A stretch of DNA of 64,000 bases from an uncultured Geobacter sp. (GTDB lineage: Bacteria; Desulfobacterota; Desulfuromonadia; Geobacterales; Geobacteraceae), in assembly GCA_903915655.1 (NCBI GenBank), contig CAIWTU010000081.1, positions 1-64,000 of the forward strand, in the 5' to 3' direction. The notes below the pieces were generated by a model that saw only the letters and a list, made by a program, of their open reading frames with translations, was not told the DNA's origin and did not search any database. A program made the position numbers and the translations under genes. This document shows positions 41,791 to 51,344 of the stretch, one piece after another. Positions within the stretch are counted from its first letter, which is position 1; every line of letters begins with the position of its first letter.

Positions 41791-42114
41791 ATGACTTTCG
41801 AAATAAAGGATTCTGATATAAGGCTCGAGTTTTTCCGGGCTTCCGGTCCTGGTGGGCAGCACCGGAATACAACGGACTCGGCTGTTCGGGTTCGCCATCT
41901 CCCTACCGGGATAGTAACTCAGGCCTCTGATAGCCGTTCTCAGCTACAGAACCGCCAGACGGCCATGAACCGATTACAGGCAGCTCTCAAGAAGCGGGCA
42001 GAAAAGGTCAAGAAGAGAATCGCTACACGTGTACCGCCGAGGACCAGGGAGAAACGGTTGACCGAGAAGAAAATTGTTTCACTACGGAAAAAACTTCGCA
42101 CAACAGTTGACTGA
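41791..42114 (+). CDS. Stand-alone GGQ-domain peptide-chain-release-factor-like protein
   Basis: A 107-residue protein with only the peptidyl-tRNA hydrolase (GGQ) domain of class I release factors: [19 protein letters not shown] near residues 15-33, then [22 protein letters not shown]. The codon-reading domains are absent. The C-terminal 45 residues are very basic ([14 protein letters not shown] ... REKRLTEKK). This fits a ribosome-rescue factor of the ArfB type or the short release-factor-like family. The ribosome site is GGGGG six bases before ATG. The CBS-pyrophosphatase gene starts 22 bases downstream. Confidence 0.87.
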
Positions 42115-42136: not shown

Positions 42137-43783
42137 ATGTCAAAAAAGATATACATTATCGGGCACAGAAGCCCTGATACAGATTCCATTGCTTCGGCAA
42201 TCGCTTATGCTGAACTGAAGAAAAAACTCGGTCTGGAGAATGTCTCCGCCGCCATGGCGGGGCAACCAAACCCTCAGACGAACTACATCCTCGAACGGCT
42301 CGACATCGATCTCCCTCTTTACCTTGCTGATGTCCATCCCAAGGTCAGGGATGTTCTTAAAGCTCGACCTGTTACCGCTACTGAAGAGATGCCGCTGAAG
42401 GAGGCGCTGGAGCTTTTTCACCGACATAATATCCGGGTTCTGCCGGTGATCGATGAGCGGAACGAGCCGTGCGGCATCGTTTCCCTCCTCAAACTCTCCG
42501 AAAAATACCTTGTTGGCGGAACTGACCGGAGGCGCGGAGTGGACACCTCACTCCACTCCCTTGCTGCCTGCCTTGAGGGGACTTTCCTTGCTGGTGGGCC
42601 TGCAAAAAAGCTGGAGCATCTCAACCTCTACATAGGGGCCATGACCGAAGAGTCTTTCACAGACCGGATAGCCGCATACGATCCCGCTTCGCTCCTGATC
42701 ATGACCGGAGACCGTCGCTCTATCCAGCAGGCGGCAATCGAGATGGGGGTGAGGCTGCTTGTGGTCACAGGTGGTTTAGCAGTTGATGATGACCTGCTGG
42801 CAAAGGCACGCGAAACCGGAACAAACGTACTCTCCACTCCTTGTGACACGGCTTCCGCCGCCGGTCTCCTCAGACTCTCTACCCCGATTTCCTGTTTCGT
42901 AGAGTCAAGGTATGCCAAGATCGGTGTTGCCGAACCACTAGAGCATCTGCGACTCAGGCTCCTTCATTCCGGTGAATCGGCAGTTATTGCAGTGGAAGAG
43001 GACGGAACCATAGCTGGTATTGCCACCAGATCGTCACTCTTGATCCCCATACCCTACGCCCTTATTCTTGTCGACCATAATGAACTCGGCCAAGCCGTAC
43101 CGGGGGCCGGGTCAGTGGATATCCTGGAGGTAATCGATCACCACAAGCTCGGCAATCCCCCCACAAACCTCCCGATTACCTTCCTGTCGGCTCCTGTAGG
43201 GAGTACCTGCACCCTGGTTGCCTCGCTTTTCAGCGATCGGGGGGTGATCCCCGAACCAAAAACTGCCGCCTTATTGATGGCCGGCATTATATCCGATACG
43301 GTTATCCTCAAGTCGCCCACCACCACCGCTCGTGACAGGGAGCTGGTCGCCTGGCTGGAAGAGTTGTCGGGAATGGACCACCAGCAATTCGGCAGGGACA
43401 TATTCTCCTCGTGCAGTGGGTTTACCTGTCATTCCTCGCCGGAAGCCGCAATCCGATCCGACTTCAAGCAGTTCAGCACTTCCGATACCCTTTTTGGTGT
43501 CGGGCAGGTGGAGGTGTTCGGCTTCGAAGAGTTTTTTGAGCTGAAGGAGGCCCTCCGCGACGCCTTGAAACGGATCAAAGATGATGATCGTCTCCACCTG
43601 GCGGGGCTGATGGTGACCGATATCTACACTGAAACAACCCTCTTTCTTGCCGAGGGGAAGAACGAACTTGCGCATATCATAGGCTATCCGCAGCTGGAAC
43701 CACACCTCTATGAGTTAAAAGGGGTCATGTCGCGTAAAAAACAGCTGGTACCCCACCTCCTGAAGGTTCTGGGATCGATTTAA
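42137..43783 (+). CDS. Family II inorganic pyrophosphatase with CBS and DRTGG domains
   Basis: A manganese-dependent pyrophosphatase of 548 residues. The DHH catalytic part is split: GHRSPDTDSIASAIAYAEL at the start and VDHNELGQ ... EVIDHHKLGN near residues 312-340, ending with DHHA2. Between them lie CBS domain 1 (about 75-130), a DRTGG segment (about 180-230) and CBS domain 2 (about 240-300). In related enzymes CBS domains sense AMP/ADP and the DRTGG-containing type binds diadenosine polyphosphates, so nucleotide regulation is expected. ATG 42137 is used because the GHRSPDTD motif follows directly. Confidence 0.93.
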   Translation: MSKKIYIIGHRSPDTDSIASAIAYAELKKKLGLENVSAAMAGQPNPQTNYILERLDIDLPLYLADVHPKVRDVLKARPVTATEEMPLKEALELFHRHNIRVLPVIDERNEPCGIVSLLKLSEKYLVGGTDRRRGVDTSLHSLAACLEGTFLAGGPAKKLEHLNLYIGAMTEESFTDRIAAYDPASLLIMTGDRRSIQQAAIEMGVRLLVVTGGLAVDDDLLAKARETGTNVLSTPCDTASAAGLLRLSTPISCFVESRYAKIGVAEPLEHLRLRLLHSGESAVIAVEEDGTIAGIATRSSLLIPIPYALILVDHNELGQAVPGAGSVDILEVIDHHKLGNPPTNLPITFLSAPVGSTCTLVASLFSDRGVIPEPKTAALLMAGIISDTVILKSPTTTARDRELVAWLEELSGMDHQQFGRDIFSSCSGFTCHSSPEAAIRSDFKQFSTSDTLFGVGQVEVFGFEEFFELKEALRDALKRIKDDDRLHLAGLMVTDIYTETTLFLAEGKNELAHIIGYPQLEPHLYELKGVMSRKKQLVPHLLKVLGSI

Positions 43784-43852
43784 TCATCTCCTCTCAGCCG
43801 ATTTTTAGCCGCAACTACAGGATTCCACACCCCTTGCCAAGAAAAGGATAAG

Positions 43853-44611
43853 ATGGAAAGCATATTTACAAAACGATACCAGGTTCGCTTAAATGAAGCA
43901 GATTTCAGCGGGGCTCTCCGTCCGGTGGCGCTGCTCAACCATATGCAGGACTCAGCCGCAGCCGACTCGAGAAGATCAGGCTATTCCGTAGCGGAACTGA
44001 AGGTCAGGAATATGACCTGGGTACTCTCTCGTTATCATGTCCGCATGGAGAGATATCCTGATGTTGGGGAAACCATAGAGGTTAGAACCTGGCGTTCTTT
44101 CGGCGGCGGGATCTTTTCTTTACGGGATTACGAGATTGTTGACTCCAATGGGAATCTTCTGGCTCTGGCGACCAGTTCATGGGTGATTATGGATCTGGCA
44201 TCAAAACGCCCGGTAAAGCTTGACAAGGTTCTAGCCGAACTACCAACCTTTGACCGCAGGGCCTTGCACGATGATTTTGCCCCCCTCCCCAAATTGATAA
44301 ATTATTCAAGGGAAGATTCCTTCAGGGTTCGCATGGCTGATCTGGACCAGAACCGCCATGTCAACCATACGGTCTATGTGGAGTGGGCACTGGAAACTGT
44401 TCCGATGGAGATTCTTGATGGTTTTAGTCTGGTGGAGCTGGAAGTCGGGTACCGGGCCGAGGCGTTTTATGGTGATACTCTGCTTGTGCGGACAGGGGTA
44501 GCTAACCTTGGGGATCCTGCAGTTTTCCAGCATCAACTGGTTGACTGTCAGAACGGCAAGGAGTTTACCCGGCTGAAGACCCGCTGGAAACAAAAAAATT
44601 TTACAGGGTAA
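43853..44611 (+). CDS. Acyl-ACP thioesterase family protein
   Basis: A 252-residue double-hotdog protein. The first half (RLNEADFSGALRPVALLNHMQDSAAADSRR) and second half (VRMADLDQNRHVNHTVYVEWALE) match the acyl-ACP thioesterase family, including the Asn-His of NRHVNHTVY. It would release fatty acids from acyl carrier protein or act on acyl-CoA. AAAAGGATAAG precedes ATG 43853. epmB follows after only five bases, so they share a transcript although their roles look unrelated. Confidence 0.9.
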   Translation: MESIFTKRYQVRLNEADFSGALRPVALLNHMQDSAAADSRRSGYSVAELKVRNMTWVLSRYHVRMERYPDVGETIEVRTWRSFGGGIFSLRDYEIVDSNGNLLALATSSWVIMDLASKRPVKLDKVLAELPTFDRRALHDDFAPLPKLINYSREDSFRVRMADLDQNRHVNHTVYVEWALETVPMEILDGFSLVELEVGYRAEAFYGDTLLVRTGVANLGDPAVFQHQLVDCQNGKEFTRLKTRWKQKNFTG

Positions 44612-44616
44612 AATTC

Positions 44617-45690
44617 TTGGAAAAGTGGCAGAAAAACATCGCAAACAGCATCACCACTCCGGACGAGCTGGCGCTCCATTTTCCAATAGACAGCAGACCG
44701 TTGAGGGAAGTGGCAAAGCGCTATCCCATGCGGATTACCCCATATTACCTCGGATTGATCCGGGAAGAGGCCGATCCTATATGGCGGCAATGTGTGCCGG
44801 ACAGTGACGAATTAAAAGAGGATGAGCTTCTCCCGGATCCGCTGAACGAAGAGGGTTTGAGCCCGACCCGTGCGCTAATTCATCGTTACCCCGACAGGGT
44901 TGTGCTGCTCGTATCGTCCGCATGCGCCGTTTACTGCCGATTCTGTATGCGCAAAAGACAGGTCGGCTCTGTTGAAGGGAGATTCTCTGATAGTGAGATC
45001 GATTCAGCCATTGCCTATATAGAAAATACCCCGCAGGTTCGCGACGTTATTCTTTCGGGGGGCGACCCTCTTCTCCAGCCTGACGATCTGCTGGAAAATA
45101 TATTGGGACGTTTGCGCAAAATCCCTCACGTTGAAATAATAAGGATAGGCACCCGGACTCCGGTTACTCTACCTGAACGGATAACGGTTCGCCTTTGCCG
45201 TATGCTCAAACGCTACCACCCCCTCTATGTAAATACTCACTTCAATCACCCGTGGGAGATTACACCGCAATCCTCACTGGCATGCGCCAGGCTGGCTGAT
45301 GCGGGGATTCAGCTTGGCAACCAGACGGTACTGATGAAAGGTGTAAACGATGATACCGATGTTATGAAGCTCCTCATGCAGAAGCTCCTTGCCATCCGGG
45401 TCCGCCCGTATTATATCCATCAGATGGATCTGGTTAAGGGGACGGGGCACTTCCGGACCTCTGTCGGGAAAGGGCTATCGATACTGGAAGGGCTGCGCGG
45501 CCACACCTCCGGCATGGCTACCCCGCACTTTGTCATCGATTTGCCAGGTGGAAAGGGGAAGGTCCCGATTTTACCGGACTGCATCGAACGTGGTGGCAAC
45601 AGGCTGCTGTTACGAAATTACCTTGGTGAAGTCATAGAATATCAGGATTTGGAATCTGATCCGCCTTGCCAGCTGGCTCAAAGTTATTGA
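44617..45690 (+). CDS. epmB: EF-P beta-lysylation protein EpmB (lysine 2,3-aminomutase family)
   Basis: A 357-residue radical SAM/PLP protein. The cluster motif is CAVYCRFCMRKRQ (about residue 108-120), then ILSGGDPLLQPDDLL, RIGTRTPVTLPERIT and GNQTVLMKGVNDD. The length fits EpmB (about 340) rather than the longer catabolic aminomutase KamA (above 400). EpmB turns (S)-alpha-lysine to (R)-beta-lysine for EF-P. epmA and efp lie within 3-4 kb, which supports the call. The start is TTG 44617, with CAGGG upstream; the next ATG would cut off conserved N-terminal sequence. Confidence 0.88.
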   Translation: MEKWQKNIANSITTPDELALHFPIDSRPLREVAKRYPMRITPYYLGLIREEADPIWRQCVPDSDELKEDELLPDPLNEEGLSPTRALIHRYPDRVVLLVSSACAVYCRFCMRKRQVGSVEGRFSDSEIDSAIAYIENTPQVRDVILSGGDPLLQPDDLLENILGRLRKIPHVEIIRIGTRTPVTLPERITVRLCRMLKRYHPLYVNTHFNHPWEITPQSSLACARLADAGIQLGNQTVLMKGVNDDTDVMKLLMQKLLAIRVRPYYIHQMDLVKGTGHFRTSVGKGLSILEGLRGHTSGMATPHFVIDLPGGKGKVPILPDCIERGGNRLLLRNYLGEVIEYQDLESDPPCQLAQSY

Positions 45691-45811
45691 CAGACGCCGC
45701 TTCGCAGGATATGGTTTTTTACAATGGGAAAAGGCGAATCGACAGTGTCATGCCGAATTCCCTTTCTCTTGTTTATACCGACTATATTTCTGATTCAGTG
45801 AGGAGGCTATT

Positions 45812-46045
45812 ATGAGATCTTATGCCCGGTTTATCGGTATCTGTGTCGTTTTGTTCGCATCCCTTACCGCCTGTTGCTTACCCGGCGGAGGGGCCAAGGT
45901 GCAATCGACCAACGTTACAAACACAACGACATTGGGAGCGGAACTGGAAGACCTTAAGAAAGCTTATGCGCAGGGGATTATTACCGAGAAGGAGTATAAT
46001 TCGGCTAAAGAAAAAATCATCACGGAGAGGACCAAGGAAAAATAG
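45812..46045 (+). CDS. SHOCT-domain lipoprotein
   Basis: A 77-residue protein behind a strong GAGGAGG site. It has a signal peptide with hydrophobic core ICVVLFASL and a lipobox SLTAC, so Cys21 should be lipid-modified. A short Thr/Asn-rich spacer leads to a SHOCT motif (LEDLKKAYAQGIITEKEYNSAKEKI). SHOCT segments are short two-helix modules found at protein ends, often of oligomerisation or unknown role. It is upstream of the YidD-like gene, 94 bases away. Confidence 0.85.
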   Translation: MRSYARFIGICVVLFASLTACCLPGGGAKVQSTNVTNTTTLGAELEDLKKAYAQGIITEKEYNSAKEKIITERTKEK

Positions 46046-46139
46046 CGTCACGTTGTCCTGTTCGCTGCGCCAGGAAAAAACCTGGTTGACCAGGTCGCTC
46101 TTTCTTGCATTCTCAAAATACAATGGGTGGAAATCTTTA

Positions 46140-46562
46140 ATGATGAACGGATCAAGCAGCTGGAGAACATTCCATCTGATGGTACTCTCCTTCTGCGCGC
46201 TACTTTTCTCTGGAACTATTTCACTGGCGGAAGCGACAAATATGAAGGGGCCGGGAAAGCCTCGAGGTGATGATAGAAGGCAAGAGCTTGAGTCTTCGGT
46301 TATTAAAATCGTCTTCCTAGATGCGATCAAGATTTTTCAGAAATACATCTCACCCATGGATGGTCCAAGGTGCAGGTTCACTCCCACATGTTCGCTCTAC
46401 GGCTACAGAGCGATCAACAATCACGGCCCCTTTCTCGGCACCATGCTGACCGCAGACCGACTGATTCGATGTAACCCATGGGGAGCCCATCCCCCTTTCT
46501 ACACCCCCCTCCCGAACGGTTTATATCGTGACCCGATCGAACAAAACCTCCTCAATGAATGA
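46140..46562 (+). CDS. Exported YidD-like (DUF37 / haemolytic domain) protein
   Basis: A 140-residue protein. The C-terminal 80 residues match YidD: FLDAIKIFQKYISPMDGPRC, RFTPTCSLYGYRAI, NHGPFLGTMLTADRLIRCNPW. Canonical YidD is a short peripheral cytoplasmic protein that helps YidC insert membrane proteins and lies beside rnpA/yidC. This copy instead has a hydrophobic N-terminal segment (HLMVLSFCALLFSGTISLAEA) that looks like a cleavable signal. It would place the domain outside the inner membrane. ATG 46140 or 46143 start is likely. Its end overlaps the next gene by 8 bases, so they are coupled. Confidence 0.85.
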   Translation: MMNGSSSWRTFHLMVLSFCALLFSGTISLAEATNMKGPGKPRGDDRRQELESSVIKIVFLDAIKIFQKYISPMDGPRCRFTPTCSLYGYRAINNHGPFLGTMLTADRLIRCNPWGAHPPFYTPLPNGLYRDPIEQNLLNE

Positions 46563-47463
46563 AATAAAATCTGCGATCACTTCACTCAGCGTGCTCCTTG
46601 TCTTGCTCTTTCCCTTCGCTGCCAACTCCTATTCCGAGGAAACTGGAATTCTGCTGACGGAAAGCCTACAGCTCCGCATCGCCGATGCATTCCTGGCTGA
46701 AGGAGAGTATTACCGCGCGATCACAGAATACAAAAAAATCAACATCCTTTTCCCCGGCACAGGGCGGGGTGACTACGTCCTCTATTCTATCGGCATGGCT
46801 TATCTCCGCGGAGAGGAATACGAGCAGGCCATACGTTCTTTTTCTTCTTTAATGGCTCGCCATAGTGAGAGCTTATATACCTTGCAAGCCCATTACTTTA
46901 CGGGAATTGCCTCCTGGAAACTGAAAAAATACGGCAATGCAAAAACTGAATTCGATTTTCTGTTAGATTCCAATGCCACAACTGAATACGTTCCGCGTGC
47001 CCTAATCGCAAAGTCGTTGATGACCTTTGAACAGGGTAATGTCGCTTCCAGCATGATTATTCTCCAGCGCTTTGTTGCCCTTTATCCTGGACACAGAGTG
47101 ATGCCCGAGGCGGAAGCGACTATTCTGCTTCTTCAAGAGTATCAGAATCTTCCAGAAAAATCCGAATTACTGGCAGGCGTTCTCTCGGCGATCATACCGG
47201 GTAGCGGTCACATATACGCTGAACGCTACGCTGACGGAATAACCTCCTTCCTGCTGAATGCACTATTTATTGCGGGAACCGTTTTCGGGGTCCAGCAGGA
47301 GAATTATCTGACGGCCTCTCTCACAGGGGTGGTCGGTTTGCCCTTCTACGTCGGGAATATCTATGGCGCCGCAAATGCTGCCAAAAAGTGGAATGAAACA
47401 GTGCGCGACACGATTCGCAACAAGGTTTCTGCAACGTTTCAGGGTTTCCTCTCTGGCGATTAG
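46555..47463 (+). CDS. TPR protein with C-terminal membrane domain, partner of the YidD-like protein
   Basis: A 302-residue protein. A signal-like segment (SLSVLLVLLFPFAANSYSEE) is followed by tetratricopeptide-type repeats (DAFLAEGEYYRAITEYKKI, SIGMAYLRGEEYEQAIRSF, HYFTGIASWKLKKYGNAKTEF). A hydrophobic C-terminal region begins at about residue 216 with SAIIPGSGHIYAERYADGITSFLLNA. This Gly-rich PGSGH.Y....DG pattern resembles small membrane domains found next to YidD-like genes. The start overlaps the YidD-like stop, so the pair is made together. Function is unknown; an envelope assembly role is inferred. Confidence 0.75.
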   Translation: MNEIKSAITSLSVLLVLLFPFAANSYSEETGILLTESLQLRIADAFLAEGEYYRAITEYKKINILFPGTGRGDYVLYSIGMAYLRGEEYEQAIRSFSSLMARHSESLYTLQAHYFTGIASWKLKKYGNAKTEFDFLLDSNATTEYVPRALIAKSLMTFEQGNVASSMIILQRFVALYPGHRVMPEAEATILLLQEYQNLPEKSELLAGVLSAIIPGSGHIYAERYADGITSFLLNALFIAGTVFGVQQENYLTASLTGVVGLPFYVGNIYGAANAAKKWNETVRDTIRNKVSATFQGFLSGD

Positions 47464-47577
47464 GGGCTGGATACCGAGACAACTGGCCTGAACCACTCTT
47501 TTCGGCCAGCATCTGCAGATGTTTTGGGAGACCGCCGTGAGGTTATTGAATGCAGAGATTCTGAAGGGTAGGGGGGG

Positions 47578-48501
47578 TCACAGTTCTTCTGGGGTAAAGG
47601 CCACCACTTCGTCAATTGCCGCAGCATCCAGAAGGAGCATGACCAACCGGTCTACCCCGAGGGCAATGCCTGCCGAGGGTGGCATGTCGGTGAGTTCGTT
47701 AAGAAATTTTTCAGGAATGGGGTACGGGGGTTTACCTATAGACCTGCGATATTTTTCTTCGTTGGCAAATCGGGTTCTCTGCTCTTCCGGATCTGTCAGC
47801 TCCGTGAATGCATTAGCCAGTTCCACCCCCCCCATGTAGAGCTCAAACCGCTCGGCAACGCTTGGATCGTCTTGTCTGAGTCGCGCCAAGGCTCCGCGCT
47901 CGGCAGGGTAGTCATAGATAAAAGTTGGTCGGGATAGACCAAGATGGGGTTCGATATCTTCGACCATTACCTCGTCAAACTGATCCCTCTTACATGCCTC
48001 TTCCATGGTGACGGAGCTGTATCGAAGAAACGCTTCCCTGACAGAAATCCTTTCCCATGGGACGCTCAGGTCGATATGCTGATTGTGAAACGTGAAATTT
48101 GTGCCGTAATCTGCAGCCTCGACCACCTGTCTGATCATGGCTTCGCACTCTTCCATTAACCCAAGGTAGTCGCAGCCGGAACGATACCATTCGAGCATGG
48201 TGAACTCGGGAAGATGCCTCTTTCCACGTTCACCCTGGCGCCAGCAGCTGCAAATCTGAAAAATCCTGTCGTACCCTGCGGCCAGGAGCCGTTTCATACA
48301 CAATTCAGGAGAAGTATGGAGAAACCATGAGCCGACCTGGAATGCGTCGATATGTGATTCCGGCGCCGGCGCTGGAATCAGCAGCGGGGTTTCGACCTCG
48401 AGATAATCCCGATCTTGAAAATATCGCCGTATTTCCCTGATGGTGGCGGCTCTTCTGGTGAGCGCAGCACGACGGTCCGACAGGATACGGTTTATTGCCA
48501 C
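47578..48501 (-). CDS. epmA: EF-P--(R)-beta-lysine ligase EpmA
   Basis: EpmA (PoxA/GenX) is a truncated class II lysyl-tRNA-synthetase homologue that attaches beta-lysine to EF-P. The 307-residue length and lack of an anticodon-binding domain fit. Motif 2 reads QICSCWRQGERGKRHLPEFTMLEWYRS and motif 3 GIALGVDRLVMLLLDA. The start is GTG 48501, with AAAGGG seven bases upstream, three bases after the efp stop, so it is co-transcribed with its substrate gene. Confidence 0.93.
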   Translation of the reverse strand: MAINRILSDRRAALTRRAATIREIRRYFQDRDYLEVETPLLIPAPAPESHIDAFQVGSWFLHTSPELCMKRLLAAGYDRIFQICSCWRQGERGKRHLPEFTMLEWYRSGCDYLGLMEECEAMIRQVVEAADYGTNFTFHNQHIDLSVPWERISVREAFLRYSSVTMEEACKRDQFDEVMVEDIEPHLGLSRPTFIYDYPAERGALARLRQDDPSVAERFELYMGGVELANAFTELTDPEEQRTRFANEEKYRRSIGKPPYPIPEKFLNELTDMPPSAGIALGVDRLVMLLLDAAAIDEVVAFTPEEL

Positions 48502-48504
48502 AAA

Positions 48505-49068
48505 CTATCCCTTTACCCTGGTTGAATATTCTCCAGTTCGGGTATCGATAGTAATAAGTTCACCCTCCTCGATAAAAGGTGGAACTCGCAGGACGTAGCC
48601 GGTTTCGAGTGTTGCCGGTTTGGAATCGCTACCGGTCGTGTCTCCTTTTATCCAGGGATCGGTTTGCAGAACTCGCAGATTTACAAAATTTGGTGTATTT
48701 ACCCCGATCGGTTTGTCTCCGAATAAGAGCACTTCGACCATAAGGTTGTCAATCAGATAATATTTTGAATCGCCCAATAAATCTTCGCTGATAGCTATCT
48801 GTTCATAATTTTGATTGTCCATAAAACAGAAGTTATCACCTTCCTTGTACAGGTATTGCATAGCCCGCTCTTCAAGCCTTGCAGGCTCAAAGGTCTCACC
48901 GGATCGGTAGGTGCGGTCGAGTATCGTACCGTTAATCATATTACGCATTTTGGTGCGGTAAAGCGCCTGTCCCTTGCCCGGCTTGGAAAAATCGAAGGCA
49001 ATAACAAGATATGGATCGCCGTCGAGGGTTATTTTTAATCCTTTTCTTAAATCTGCGGCTGAGTACAT
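48505..49068 (-). CDS. efp: Translation elongation factor P
   Basis: EF-P relieves ribosome stalling at polyproline. The 187-residue protein has three beta-barrel domains: SAADLRKGLKITLDGDPYLV at the start and GYVLRVPPFIEEGELITIDT near the end. The tip of domain I reads KPGKGQAL, placing a lysine at residue 32, equal to E. coli Lys34, the site of beta-lysylation. This fits the presence of epmA next door and epmB 3 kb away. ATG 49068 is preferred over TTG 49074. Confidence 0.96.
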   Translation of the reverse strand: MYSAADLRKGLKITLDGDPYLVIAFDFSKPGKGQALYRTKMRNMINGTILDRTYRSGETFEPARLEERAMQYLYKEGDNFCFMDNQNYEQIAISEDLLGDSKYYLIDNLMVEVLLFGDKPIGVNTPNFVNLRVLQTDPWIKGDTTGSDSKPATLETGYVLRVPPFIEEGELITIDTRTGEYSTRVKG

Positions 49069-49449
49069 GGTCAATGGTTCCTTATATTGAATTTTAAAAT
49101 CATTAAACCTGGATTCGGCAGTTGAAGGGATCCTCCGTTCAAACCTGACGCCCTGTCCAATCTGCAGCTGAATGTTCTGTTATGATAAAATCATCTTCCC
49201 TGAAATTGTCTGAAAAGCTGATCGTGCCAGCAGAGATGAATTTTGGCAGGATTGATCCTTTGCAGGAACATACCAAATTATCTTTCAGGGTCATTCCTGA
49301 CAACCTCTGCAACGCATTCAAGATGGCGGGTGTTGGGGACAGACAAAACTGGTATTTGATTACGGCGTAAACCGCGACTGATATCAGACACCGAAAGAGT
49401 ATTAAGTGCTGCAACTAGCCGGAAAATTTACCCTGAATCAAGGAAGGAA
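49069..49449. other. Intergenic region between infA and efp
   Basis: About 380 bases that should hold the efp-epmA promoter. A 62-codon plus-strand frame (49182-49370) lacks a ribosome site and is not supported. Nothing else is evident. Confidence 0.4.
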
Positions 49450-49668
49450 TTATTTTGCGCGGTAGGTTATTCTGCCTCTTGTAAGATCATAAGGGGAGAG
49501 TTCTACAGTAACTTTGTCACCCGGGAGTATTTTTATGAAAAATTTTCTCATCTTCCCGGAAATGTGGGCAAGAACCATATGTTCATTCTCCAGTTTTACC
49601 CTGAACATGGCATTCGGGAGTGGTTCAACTACCGTCCCTTCAACTTCTATTGCTTCTTCTTTTTTCAT
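49450..49668 (-). CDS. infA: Translation initiation factor IF-1
   Basis: A 72-residue OB-fold protein with [42 protein letters not shown] and [18 protein letters not shown], all classic for IF-1, which binds the ribosomal A site during initiation. The length is exactly typical. It is not in a ribosomal protein operon here and appears to be transcribed alone. Confidence 0.97.
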
Positions 49669-49847
49669 GTACTGTTCCTCAATTCACCAATATAGTTGAC
49701 ATTTCTCCCCCATCTTATATGCATTTTTAAAAAAATAGCAAGAAACATTTCTCGTCTTTGAGATTATGCATCTCCTACCGTTGCAACATCACGGCATTCT
49801 GCTACCATGTAGAGTTGTGTATATACAACTTTGTGGGAGATATTCTT

Positions 49848-51344
49848 ATGATACTAAAGGTAAAGAATTTTATTGCCGGGAAATGGATAGATGCCGTCAG
49901 TGGCAAAGATTTTGTAAGTCATAACCCTGCCGACATTCGTGAAACTGTAGCCACCGCTCCCCTTTCGGGGAAAGAAGACGTTGATCTGGCAGTTTCCGCT
50001 GCCAGGGACGCTTTCGAAAAATGGCGGCTTATGCCTGCTCCGCGACGAGGTGAAATTCTGTATCGCGCAGGAGAGATTCTGATACGTCATAAACGGCAAA
50101 CGGGCGAACTGGTGACCAGGGAGATGGGAAAGGTTCTTGCCGAAGGGCTGGGTGATGTGCAGGAAGCGATTGATATGGCATTTTTTATGGCAGGAGAGGG
50201 GAGAAGAATGCAGGGTGAAACTGTCGCTTCGGAACTGCCGGATAAAGACTGCAAAAGCATACGAGTGCCGCATGGCGTCTTTGCCCTGATTACTCCATGG
50301 AATTTCCCCACTGCGATCCCTGCCTGGAAAATCTTTGCGGCAATCATTTGCGGCAACAGTGTGATCCTGAAGCCATCATCCTGTACACCGGCATGCGCTG
50401 CAGCGCTGGTGGAGGCGCTTGAAGCAGCAGGCCTCCCTCCGGGAGTCGTAAATCTCCTGCATGGCCCGGGTGAGGTTATAGGCGAATATCTGGCGACTCA
50501 TCATGGAGTTGATGCGGTATCTTTTACCGGATCCTGTGGGGCAGGGGAGAGGCTTGAGGCCGCCCTGGGGAAAATACATCGCCCGGTGGCAACGGAGATG
50601 GGGGGCAAAAACGCCATTATTGTAATGAATGACGCCGATCTCGAGTTAGCACTGGAGGGCGTTCTCTGGGGTGCATTTGGAACCAGCGGTCAGCGTTGCA
50701 CCGCAGCAAGCCGCGTTGTGATCCACGAAGAGATATATGAGAGCTTTGTCGAGATGTTGAAAATCGCCACAGAAAAACTTGTTCTCGGCGACGGTCTGCA
50801 GAATGATACCGATGTTGGTCCTGTAATAAGCGAAGAACAGCTGAAAAAAATAGTGGAATATATTCGCATAGGGGTCGATGAAGGGGCGCGGCTAGTGACC
50901 GGCGGGAGGCAGTCCAGGAAAAAAGAGTGCGCCCATGGATACTTTGTTGAACCGACTCTATTTGCCAATGTCTCCAAAACCATGCGCATTGCCACCGAAG
51001 AGATTTTCGGTCCGGTAGTCTGTGCCATATCATGCATTGATCTTGATGATGCCATTGCAATTGTCAACGATGTCGACTTCGGACTTTCCGCAGCCATCTA
51101 CAGCCGCGATGTGAACAGCACCGCAAGAGCAGAAAGAGATCTACAGACCGGCATTGTCTACATTAATGCCTCTACTATCGGTGCGGAAATACAACTCCCC
51201 TTCGGCGGCTGGAAACACTCCGGTTCCGGGCACCCGGAAGCGGGGGGGAGGGGTGGCGCACTGGAATTCTACAGCAGGATAAAAGTTATTTATCGTGATT
51301 ACAGCGGCAGACTGCAAAGAGCCCAGATTGACAATGAAAACTAA
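49848..51344 (+). CDS. NAD(P)-dependent aldehyde dehydrogenase
   Basis: A 498-residue ALDH. ITPWNFPTAIPAWKIFAAI, SFTGSCGAGERL (cofactor loop), EMGGKNAIIV (general-base Glu) and FGTSGQRCTAASRV (catalytic Cys near residue 287) are intact, as is EEIFGPVV. It resembles semialdehyde dehydrogenases (succinate, glutarate or aminoadipate semialdehyde). GGGAG precedes ATG 49848; the longer frame is rejected. It heads an operon with a class III aminotransferase, 19 bases downstream, so the substrate is probably the semialdehyde made by that enzyme. Confidence 0.92.
   Translation: MILKVKNFIAGKWIDAVSGKDFVSHNPADIRETVATAPLSGKEDVDLAVSAARDAFEKWRLMPAPRRGEILYRAGEILIRHKRQTGELVTREMGKVLAEGLGDVQEAIDMAFFMAGEGRRMQGETVASELPDKDCKSIRVPHGVFALITPWNFPTAIPAWKIFAAIICGNSVILKPSSCTPACAAALVEALEAAGLPPGVVNLLHGPGEVIGEYLATHHGVDAVSFTGSCGAGERLEAALGKIHRPVATEMGGKNAIIVMNDADLELALEGVLWGAFGTSGQRCTAASRVVIHEEIYESFVEMLKIATEKLVLGDGLQNDTDVGPVISEEQLKKIVEYIRIGVDEGARLVTGGRQSRKKECAHGYFVEPTLFANVSKTMRIATEEIFGPVVCAISCIDLDDAIAIVNDVDFGLSAAIYSRDVNSTARAERDLQTGIVYINASTIGAEIQLPFGGWKHSGSGHPEAGGRGGALEFYSRIKVIYRDYSGRLQRAQIDNEN

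What the first reader, a model, noticed from the sequence alone, without database searches (positions are those of the whole stretch)
46140..47463. Exported YidD-like domain coupled to a TPR/membrane protein
Canonical YidD is cytoplasmic and sits beside yidC. This copy has a signal peptide and overlaps a gene for a TPR protein with a PGSGH-type membrane domain. The SHOCT lipoprotein lies just upstream. This could be an envelope system not described in function.
Basis: partly seen in the sequence, partly recalled or inferred. Interest (0 to 1): 0.58.

Follow-up and report, generated by a model that had tools for sequence, protein, structure and literature searches.

The report
Exported YidD-TPR envelope gene module
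A second, exported form of the membrane-insertion helper YidD travels with one particular membrane-anchored TPR protein, and often with a small lipoprotein, in many sulfate- and metal-reducing bacteria, which points to an undescribed cell-envelope system whose task is still unknown.

Summary
Window 46140-46562 encodes a 140-aa protein with a Sec-type N-terminus and a true YidD domain. It overlaps by 8 nt a 302-aa TPR protein with a C-terminal membrane domain (46555-47463). A SHOCT lipoprotein precedes it (45812-46045). The genome also has a canonical yidD between rnpA and yidC.

Survey: in 58 relatives, the 7 with a second YidD are the same 7 with the TPR partner, adjacent in each. In 247 phylum genomes the exported YidD (53) and TPR partner (57) coincide in 50 (uncorrected Fisher p 8e-41). 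In 8 of those 50 they are not adjacent. Of 80 named TPR loci, 67 carry YidD nearby, in either order. The lipoprotein marks one clade (24 of 24) and is absent from the other (0 of 56). The module is accessory: in 5 of 8 family genomes examined, including the one other congener, the flanking genes stand tail to tail without it.

Most likely this is an envelope module whose YidD domain acts from the periplasmic side on a TPR scaffold. Localisation and activity are inferred, untested. NCBI's YidD equivalog model matches the exported form, so it is easily misnamed. New variant of a known kind; function open.

The parts
45812..46045 (+). SHOCT-domain lipoprotein, 77 aa, lipobox LTAC-C; accessory member of the module (clade A only)
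   Evidence: PF09851 31.8 bits over cut-off 27; the two Cys of the lipobox invariant in 11 of 11 aligned sequences; present in 24 of 24 clade A loci and 0 of 56 others
46140..46562 (+). Exported YidD paralogue, 140 aa: export signal about residues 1-30, conserved MKGP just after it, YidD domain about residues 54-116, family-specific tail around D131
   Evidence: PF01809 and TIGR00278 over cut-off; hydrophobic N-terminal segment and charge pattern; AlphaFold2 model mean pLDDT 82.3
46555..47463 (+). TPR protein with export-type N-terminus, TPR solenoid about residues 34-197 and C-terminal membrane domain about residues 204-300 with PGSGH motif; overlaps the yidD stop codon by 8 nt
   Evidence: TPR families; AlphaFold2 model mean pLDDT 95.4; TPR part matches YbgF TPR 2xev_C Z 19.0, rmsd 1.4, 122 aligned
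45691..47577 (.). Interval that holds the module between the KamA/EpmB-like gene (ends 45690) and the convergent EpmA-like gene (ends 47578); absent in relatives whose two genes stand tail to tail
   Evidence: 5 of 8 relatives examined (G001, G002, G003, G011, G016) show the two genes end to end; no match to the three module proteins in any of the 8 loci

Best explanation
This is an accessory cell-envelope module. Its core is a YidD paralogue that is exported and a TPR protein anchored in the inner membrane, with a SHOCT lipoprotein added in one clade. Shown by sequence: the domains, the export-type N-termini, the co-inheritance of the two core genes even when unlinked, and the empty site in relatives. 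Inferred: the TPR solenoid faces the periplasm and its C-terminal helices sit in the inner membrane (loop charges fit this, by eye). The exported YidD docks on that scaffold and works at the outer face of the inner membrane, helping insertion or assembly of some exported, lipid-linked or membrane protein, as canonical YidD is thought to help YidC from the cytoplasmic side. The client is unknown.
For: Second YidD and TPR partner in the same 7 of 58 relatives, adjacent and on the same strand in each. In 247 phylum genomes: YidD2 53, TPR partner 57, both 50, neither 187; 42 adjacent, 8 not adjacent but both present. Of 13 named genomes whose TPR locus lacks a YidD neighbour, 10 have a YidD2 elsewhere. 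Gene order in clade B is either TPR-YidD (30) or YidD-TPR (13). Hydrophobic N-terminal segment in 66 of 66, N-terminal side more positive in 58 of 65 with a start assigned. The TPR fold is that of YbgF and BamD, which work in the envelope.
Against: No experiment and no signal-peptide program; cleavage and location are inferred. Positive charges follow the hydrophobic segment in the window's own copy (MKGPGKPRGDDRR), and 3 of 65 relatives have the reverse charge order. 7 of 57 TPR genomes lack a YidD2 and 3 of 53 YidD2 genomes lack the TPR partner; 3 of 13 named genomes have only canonical YidD. No structural relative of the YidD fold was found. The proposed activity rests on what is reported for E. 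coli YidD, itself thinly studied. Co-occurrence counts are not corrected for common descent.
Confidence: 0.5

Rival explanations
1. The N-terminal helix is an uncleaved anchor and the YidD domain stays in the cytoplasm, so this is a membrane-tethered second YidD that still serves YidC.
For: The domain passes the YidD equivalog model, and the window's copy keeps all three Cys of canonical YidD. Positive residues follow the hydrophobic segment in the window's copy.
Against: N-terminal side more positive than the following 15 residues in 58 of 65 relatives; many have textbook cleavable-looking signals by eye (for example in loci L077 and L078); the partners are a lipoprotein and a TPR protein that themselves have export-type N-termini. 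The third Cys is lost in 37 of 66.
Confidence: 0.1
2. The exported YidD domain is a membrane-active or lipid-handling protein (envelope remodelling, lysis or permeability), not a protein-insertion helper, and the TPR protein controls it.
For: A Bacillus subtilis YidD relative, YtjA, is reported to lyse cells (passage in PMC3573977; original paper not seen). The domain is short and helical.
Against: No toxin-antitoxin-like layout; the pair is kept widely and also in unlinked form, which suits a partnership better than a toxin; no PADLOC match for the three proteins.
Confidence: 0.2
3. The exported YidD is a small metal or redox protein of the envelope: two invariant Cys plus a third position that is only Cys, Glu or Asp bind a metal ion, and the TPR protein is its dock.
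For: C78 and C84 in 66 of 66; residue 111 is C 29, E 35, D 2 of 66, all possible metal ligands; Cys in 16 of 16 canonical YidD. The host has no DsbB or VKOR match, which speaks against a routine disulfide.
Against: Other routes of thiol oxidation were not tested. A small subset adds a further Cys together with the third one (6 of 66), which would suit a disulfide there.
Confidence: 0.15

Closest known systems
Canonical YidD (PF01809, TIGR00278), rpmH-rnpA-yidD-yidC locus
   Same: Same domain with CRFxPTCS core and conserved Cys pair; the window copy passes both curated cut-offs, and all 66 relatives match both families at E up to 0.01
   Different: Export-type N-terminus, other locus, own C-terminal tail, third Cys replaced by Glu or Asp in 37 of 66 relatives, constant TPR partner
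YbgF/CpoB and BamD TPR proteins of the envelope
   Same: TPR solenoid fold: YbgF 2xev Z 19.0, rmsd 1.4, 122 aligned; BamD 2yhc Z 18.3, rmsd 1.7, 127 aligned
   Different: Here the TPR part is followed by a membrane domain; scores lie below the NCBIfam cut-offs for YbgF and BamD; no lipobox Cys; not in a tol-pal or bam locus
DUF5683, DUF6677 and TM2 membrane domains
   Same: Weak matches of the family: DUF5683 in 14 of 70, TM2 in 7 of 70, DUF6677 in 5 of 70 relatives at E up to 0.01
   Different: The window's own protein stays below the cut-offs; no function is assigned to the DUFs
SHOCT lipoproteins (PF09851)
   Same: SHOCT domain over cut-off behind a lipobox
   Different: Bound to the YidD-TPR pair in one clade only

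Membership tests
YidD domain family (PF01809 / TIGR00278) | Domain match over the curated cut-off | tested here: met
   79.6 bits against 27 and 77.2 against 40
Canonical YidD (orthologue of E. coli YidD) | Gene beside rnpA and yidC | tested here: not met
   That place holds the other copy, L001
Canonical YidD (orthologue of E. coli YidD) | No export signal, cytoplasmic side of the inner membrane | tested here: inconclusive
   Export-type N-terminus by sequence; location itself was not tested
Canonical YidD (orthologue of E. coli YidD) | Stimulates YidC-dependent insertion | not testable with these tools
   Needs a biochemical assay; the E. coli report is known here only through passages of other papers
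BamD | Lipoprotein with score over the BamD model cut-off | tested here: not met
   TIGR03302 57.5 bits against 81.4; no Cys in the 302-aa protein by eye
YbgF/CpoB | Score over the YbgF model cut-off | tested here: not met
   TIGR02795 54.4 bits against 90.1
DUF5683 / DUF6677 / TM2 membrane domain | Match of the C-terminal domain over cut-off | tested here: inconclusive
   Window protein below cut-off (DUF6677 16.5 of 24.3, DUF5683 12.6 of 26.7); weak matches in some relatives
SHOCT lipoprotein | SHOCT domain over cut-off behind a lipobox | tested here: met
   31.8 bits against 27; Cys-Cys invariant in 11 of 11; lipobox judged by eye
Anti-phage defence systems (PADLOC) | Any model match at E up to 0.01 | tested here: not met
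   0 families for the three proteins

The most novel reading that the evidence does not exclude
Bacteria have evolved a trans-side counterpart of the YidC-YidD pair: an exported YidD that, held by a TPR/membrane scaffold in place of YidC, helps membrane, lipid-linked or pilin-like proteins from the periplasmic face, with a metal site (two Cys plus Cys, Glu or Asp) as its working centre.
Probability: 0.15. Interest if true: 0.8.

Novelty: new variant of a known kind. Interest (0 to 1): 0.52.

Why it matters
YidD is very widespread (57 of 58 relatives and 10 of 14 control genomes here), yet its biochemical role is poorly known. An exported paralogue with a constant partner gives a second, separable setting in which to ask what the domain does. 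The pair is found in 50 of 247 sampled genomes of the phylum, so it is a common but unnamed envelope system of anaerobes such as Geobacter relatives and sulfate reducers. It also flags an annotation risk: the NCBI equivalog model TIGR00278 matches the exported copies (66 of 66 at E up to 0.01; the window's copy is over the cut-off), so they are likely to be named 'membrane protein insertion efficiency factor YidD'.

Tried and rejected
Rejected: that the gene is the genome's only yidD. Rejected: that the pairing is local to this genome. Rejected as a general feature: the lipoprotein as a core part, since 56 of 80 named loci lack it. Not supported: a routine disulfide in this host, as DsbB and VKOR gave no match; other routes were not tested.

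Led nowhere: fold comparison of YidD2. Foldseek best E 4.2; VIA-align best Z 3.4, rmsd 3.3, 58 aligned; sequence search of the PDB only E 0.61. The membrane domain of the TPR protein was not modelled alone. Neighbour genes outside the module: recurring ones follow the lineages (indolepyruvate oxidoreductase and DnaJ in Syntrophales-type loci, GspD/GspE in some Desulfobacteraceae-type loci, names by eye) and were not pursued. Promoter and terminator patterns were at chance level. No Rfam match at 43500-50000. No boundary repeats that would show a mobile element, and only a slight dip of G+C over the module. A domain tree separated canonical from exported copies, with weak support (0.70). A first script for signal analysis chose wrong start codons and was replaced.

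Limits: the 80 named loci are the best 80 of 237. The TPR profile A1 was built from loci that had in part been found through their YidD neighbour, so its reach leans towards such loci. The 66 rows of A4 are the window's copy plus 65 of 68 YidD2 hits (under 88% identical) that had matched at least 90 profile positions; this favours copies with a matching N-terminus. In one search the thresholds were set by me from the listings: TPR hits that reach the membrane domain with 97 bits or more; YidD2 hits that reach profile position 129 or more, which takes in two hits of 67 and 71 bits (G177, G205) and one partial hit of 70 bits (G095).

Full report
What is there. The window lies in an unnamed 3.36-Mb genome (G000, contig C81). 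Three genes in a row on the + strand make up the feature. The SHOCT lipoprotein is at 45812-46045 (77 aa), the YidD paralogue at 46140-46562 (140 aa) and the TPR protein at 46555-47463 (302 aa). The last two overlap by 8 nt. Family scans give SHOCT 31.8 bits (cut-off 27), YidD 79.6 (cut-off 27) and TPR_6 41.6 (cut-off 26.3), and TIGR00278 77.2 (cut-off 40).

A canonical copy exists. PF01809 finds two places in the genome. The other, at C7:64137-64334, reads rpmH-rnpA-yidD-yidC (neighbours named by eye). The copy in the window is therefore a paralogue.

It is an export-type family. I aligned the window's copy with 65 relatives (A4, 66 rows). A hydrophobic 12-residue window of at least 2.0 (Kyte-Doolittle) lies upstream of the domain in 66 of 66, against 0 of 16 canonical YidD; 4 of those 16 had no room for one. 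The N-terminal side is more positive than the next 15 residues in 58 of 65, equal in 4 and less in 3; one of the 66 had no start assigned. This is the pattern of a Sec signal. Cleavage was not predicted by a dedicated program. The rows were chosen with a profile that includes the N-terminus, which favours this result.

The TPR partner. The AlphaFold2 model has mean pLDDT 95.4: an N-terminal helix, a TPR solenoid, then helices 204-213, 217-221, 225-247 and 251-300. The solenoid matches the YbgF TPR domain at Z 19.0, rmsd 1.4, 122 aligned, and BamD at Z 18.3, rmsd 1.7, 127 aligned, within a list of many TPR proteins. The family has weak matches to DUF5683 (14 of 70), TM2 (7 of 70) and DUF6677 (5 of 70) at E up to 0.01. 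With an exported N-terminus, charges of the loops and tail suit a periplasmic solenoid and a cytoplasmic C-terminus (by eye).

Co-inheritance. In 58 relatives (the window's genome included) searched separately with the TPR protein and with PF01809, 57 have at least one YidD. Seven (G000, G011, G016, G026, G030, G033, G041) have a second. The same 7 are those with a good match to the partner that includes its membrane domain (E 6e-14 or better); G029 has one weak hit (E 9e-4) that touches this domain but holds three stop codons. The two genes lie adjacent on the same strand in all 7. In 247 genomes of the phylum, the TPR profile gives 57 genomes, the YidD2 profile 53, both 50, neither 187 (Fisher p 8e-41, not corrected for descent). 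In 42 of the 50 they are adjacent; in 8 they are on other contigs or, in G214, about 1 Mb apart. Without YidD2: G058, G073, G149, G239, G262, G264, G286. Without TPR: G095, G191, G217.

Named loci. A scan of GTDB contigs with the TPR alignment found 237 relatives, of which the best 80 were returned, most from Desulfobacterota-type metagenome assemblies, with a few labelled SAR324, Schekmanbacteria, Verrucomicrobia, Chloroflexi or Gammaproteobacteria. In 67 of 80 a YidD lies in the fetched stretch. The 24 closest loci (clade A) all read SHOCT-YidD-TPR. The other 56 (clade B) have no SHOCT match; 43 have YidD, 30 after and 13 before the TPR gene. For the 13 without a YidD in the fetched stretch I searched the whole genomes: 10 have a YidD2 elsewhere, 3 (G447, G448, G449) only canonical YidD. 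The TPR hit was found again in 12 of 13, on other contigs than YidD2 where YidD2 exists; in the SAR324 genome no TPR hit passed the threshold. Free order and unlinked co-occurrence speak for a working partnership rather than for simple hitch-hiking.

Accessory nature. In the window the module fills 1.9 kb between a KamA/EpmB-like gene and a convergent EpmA-like gene (names partly by eye; EpmB model cut-off not met). In 5 of 8 family genomes examined (G001 of the same genus, G002, G003, G011, G016) these two genes stand tail to tail without it. In the other 3 the second gene was not in the fetched flank. None of the 8 loci matched a module protein. G011 and G016 have the module elsewhere. So it was gained here or lost repeatedly.

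Residues. C78, P82, C84, R107 and D131 are invariant in the 66 rows. Residue 111 is Cys in 29, Glu in 35 and Asp in 2, against Cys in 16 of 16 canonical copies (read from the sequences printed). In 6 rows, all in clade B, a new Cys just before D131 goes with Cys 111. The host has no DsbB or VKOR match. A metal site is as good a guess as a disulfide.

Mechanism. The best-supported reading is an exported YidD held by an inner-membrane TPR scaffold, acting on the periplasmic side in the insertion or assembly of envelope proteins. The location is inferred from sequence. The activity is inferred from what other papers report for E. coli YidD (passages of PMC8082313, PMC3573977, PMC10490939, PMC10502375); the original 2011 paper was not available. 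A membrane-active role (YtjA report, passage) and a metal or redox role remain open.

Known or new. Literature searches for YidD with signal peptide, YidD alone (mostly unrelated words), YidC plus insertion, paralog plus periplasm, DUF5683, tetratricopeptide and Desulfo/Geobacter showed, in their listings, no description of this pair; a Leptospira paper that holds both YidD and tetratricopeptide speaks of the yidD next to yidC (passages, PMC13066512). The held library lacks most subscription journals. The parts are known domains; the combination, the export and the co-inheritance are the new points.

Noticed in passing
window 46080-46095: A small hairpin (ACCTGGTTGACCAGGT) lies between the lipoprotein stop and the yidD start; it could be an attenuator, but terminator-like hits in the region are at chance level.
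   Followed up: no
window 46140-46562, residue 111 of the protein, in alignment A4: Only Cys, Glu or Asp occur at this position in 66 rows, always Cys in 16 canonical YidD; suggests a metal ligand.
   Followed up: partly
L080, L121, L134, L145, L151, L160: A clade B subset has an extra Cys directly before the invariant Asp together with the third Cys (6 of 66 rows).
   Followed up: no
L112, L116, L134, L139, L145, L149, L160, L080: In these loci the TPR gene, mostly with YidD2, lies near genes that look like GspE/PilB and, in most, GspD (by eye).
   Followed up: no
window 41791-42114: Small ORF with a GGQ motif, like a short release-factor-type protein (by eye).
   Followed up: no
L144, L147, L154, L155: Desulfuromonadales-type genomes keep the TPR gene beside ispD/ispF/carD-like genes (by eye) and the YidD2 gene on another contig.
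   Followed up: partly
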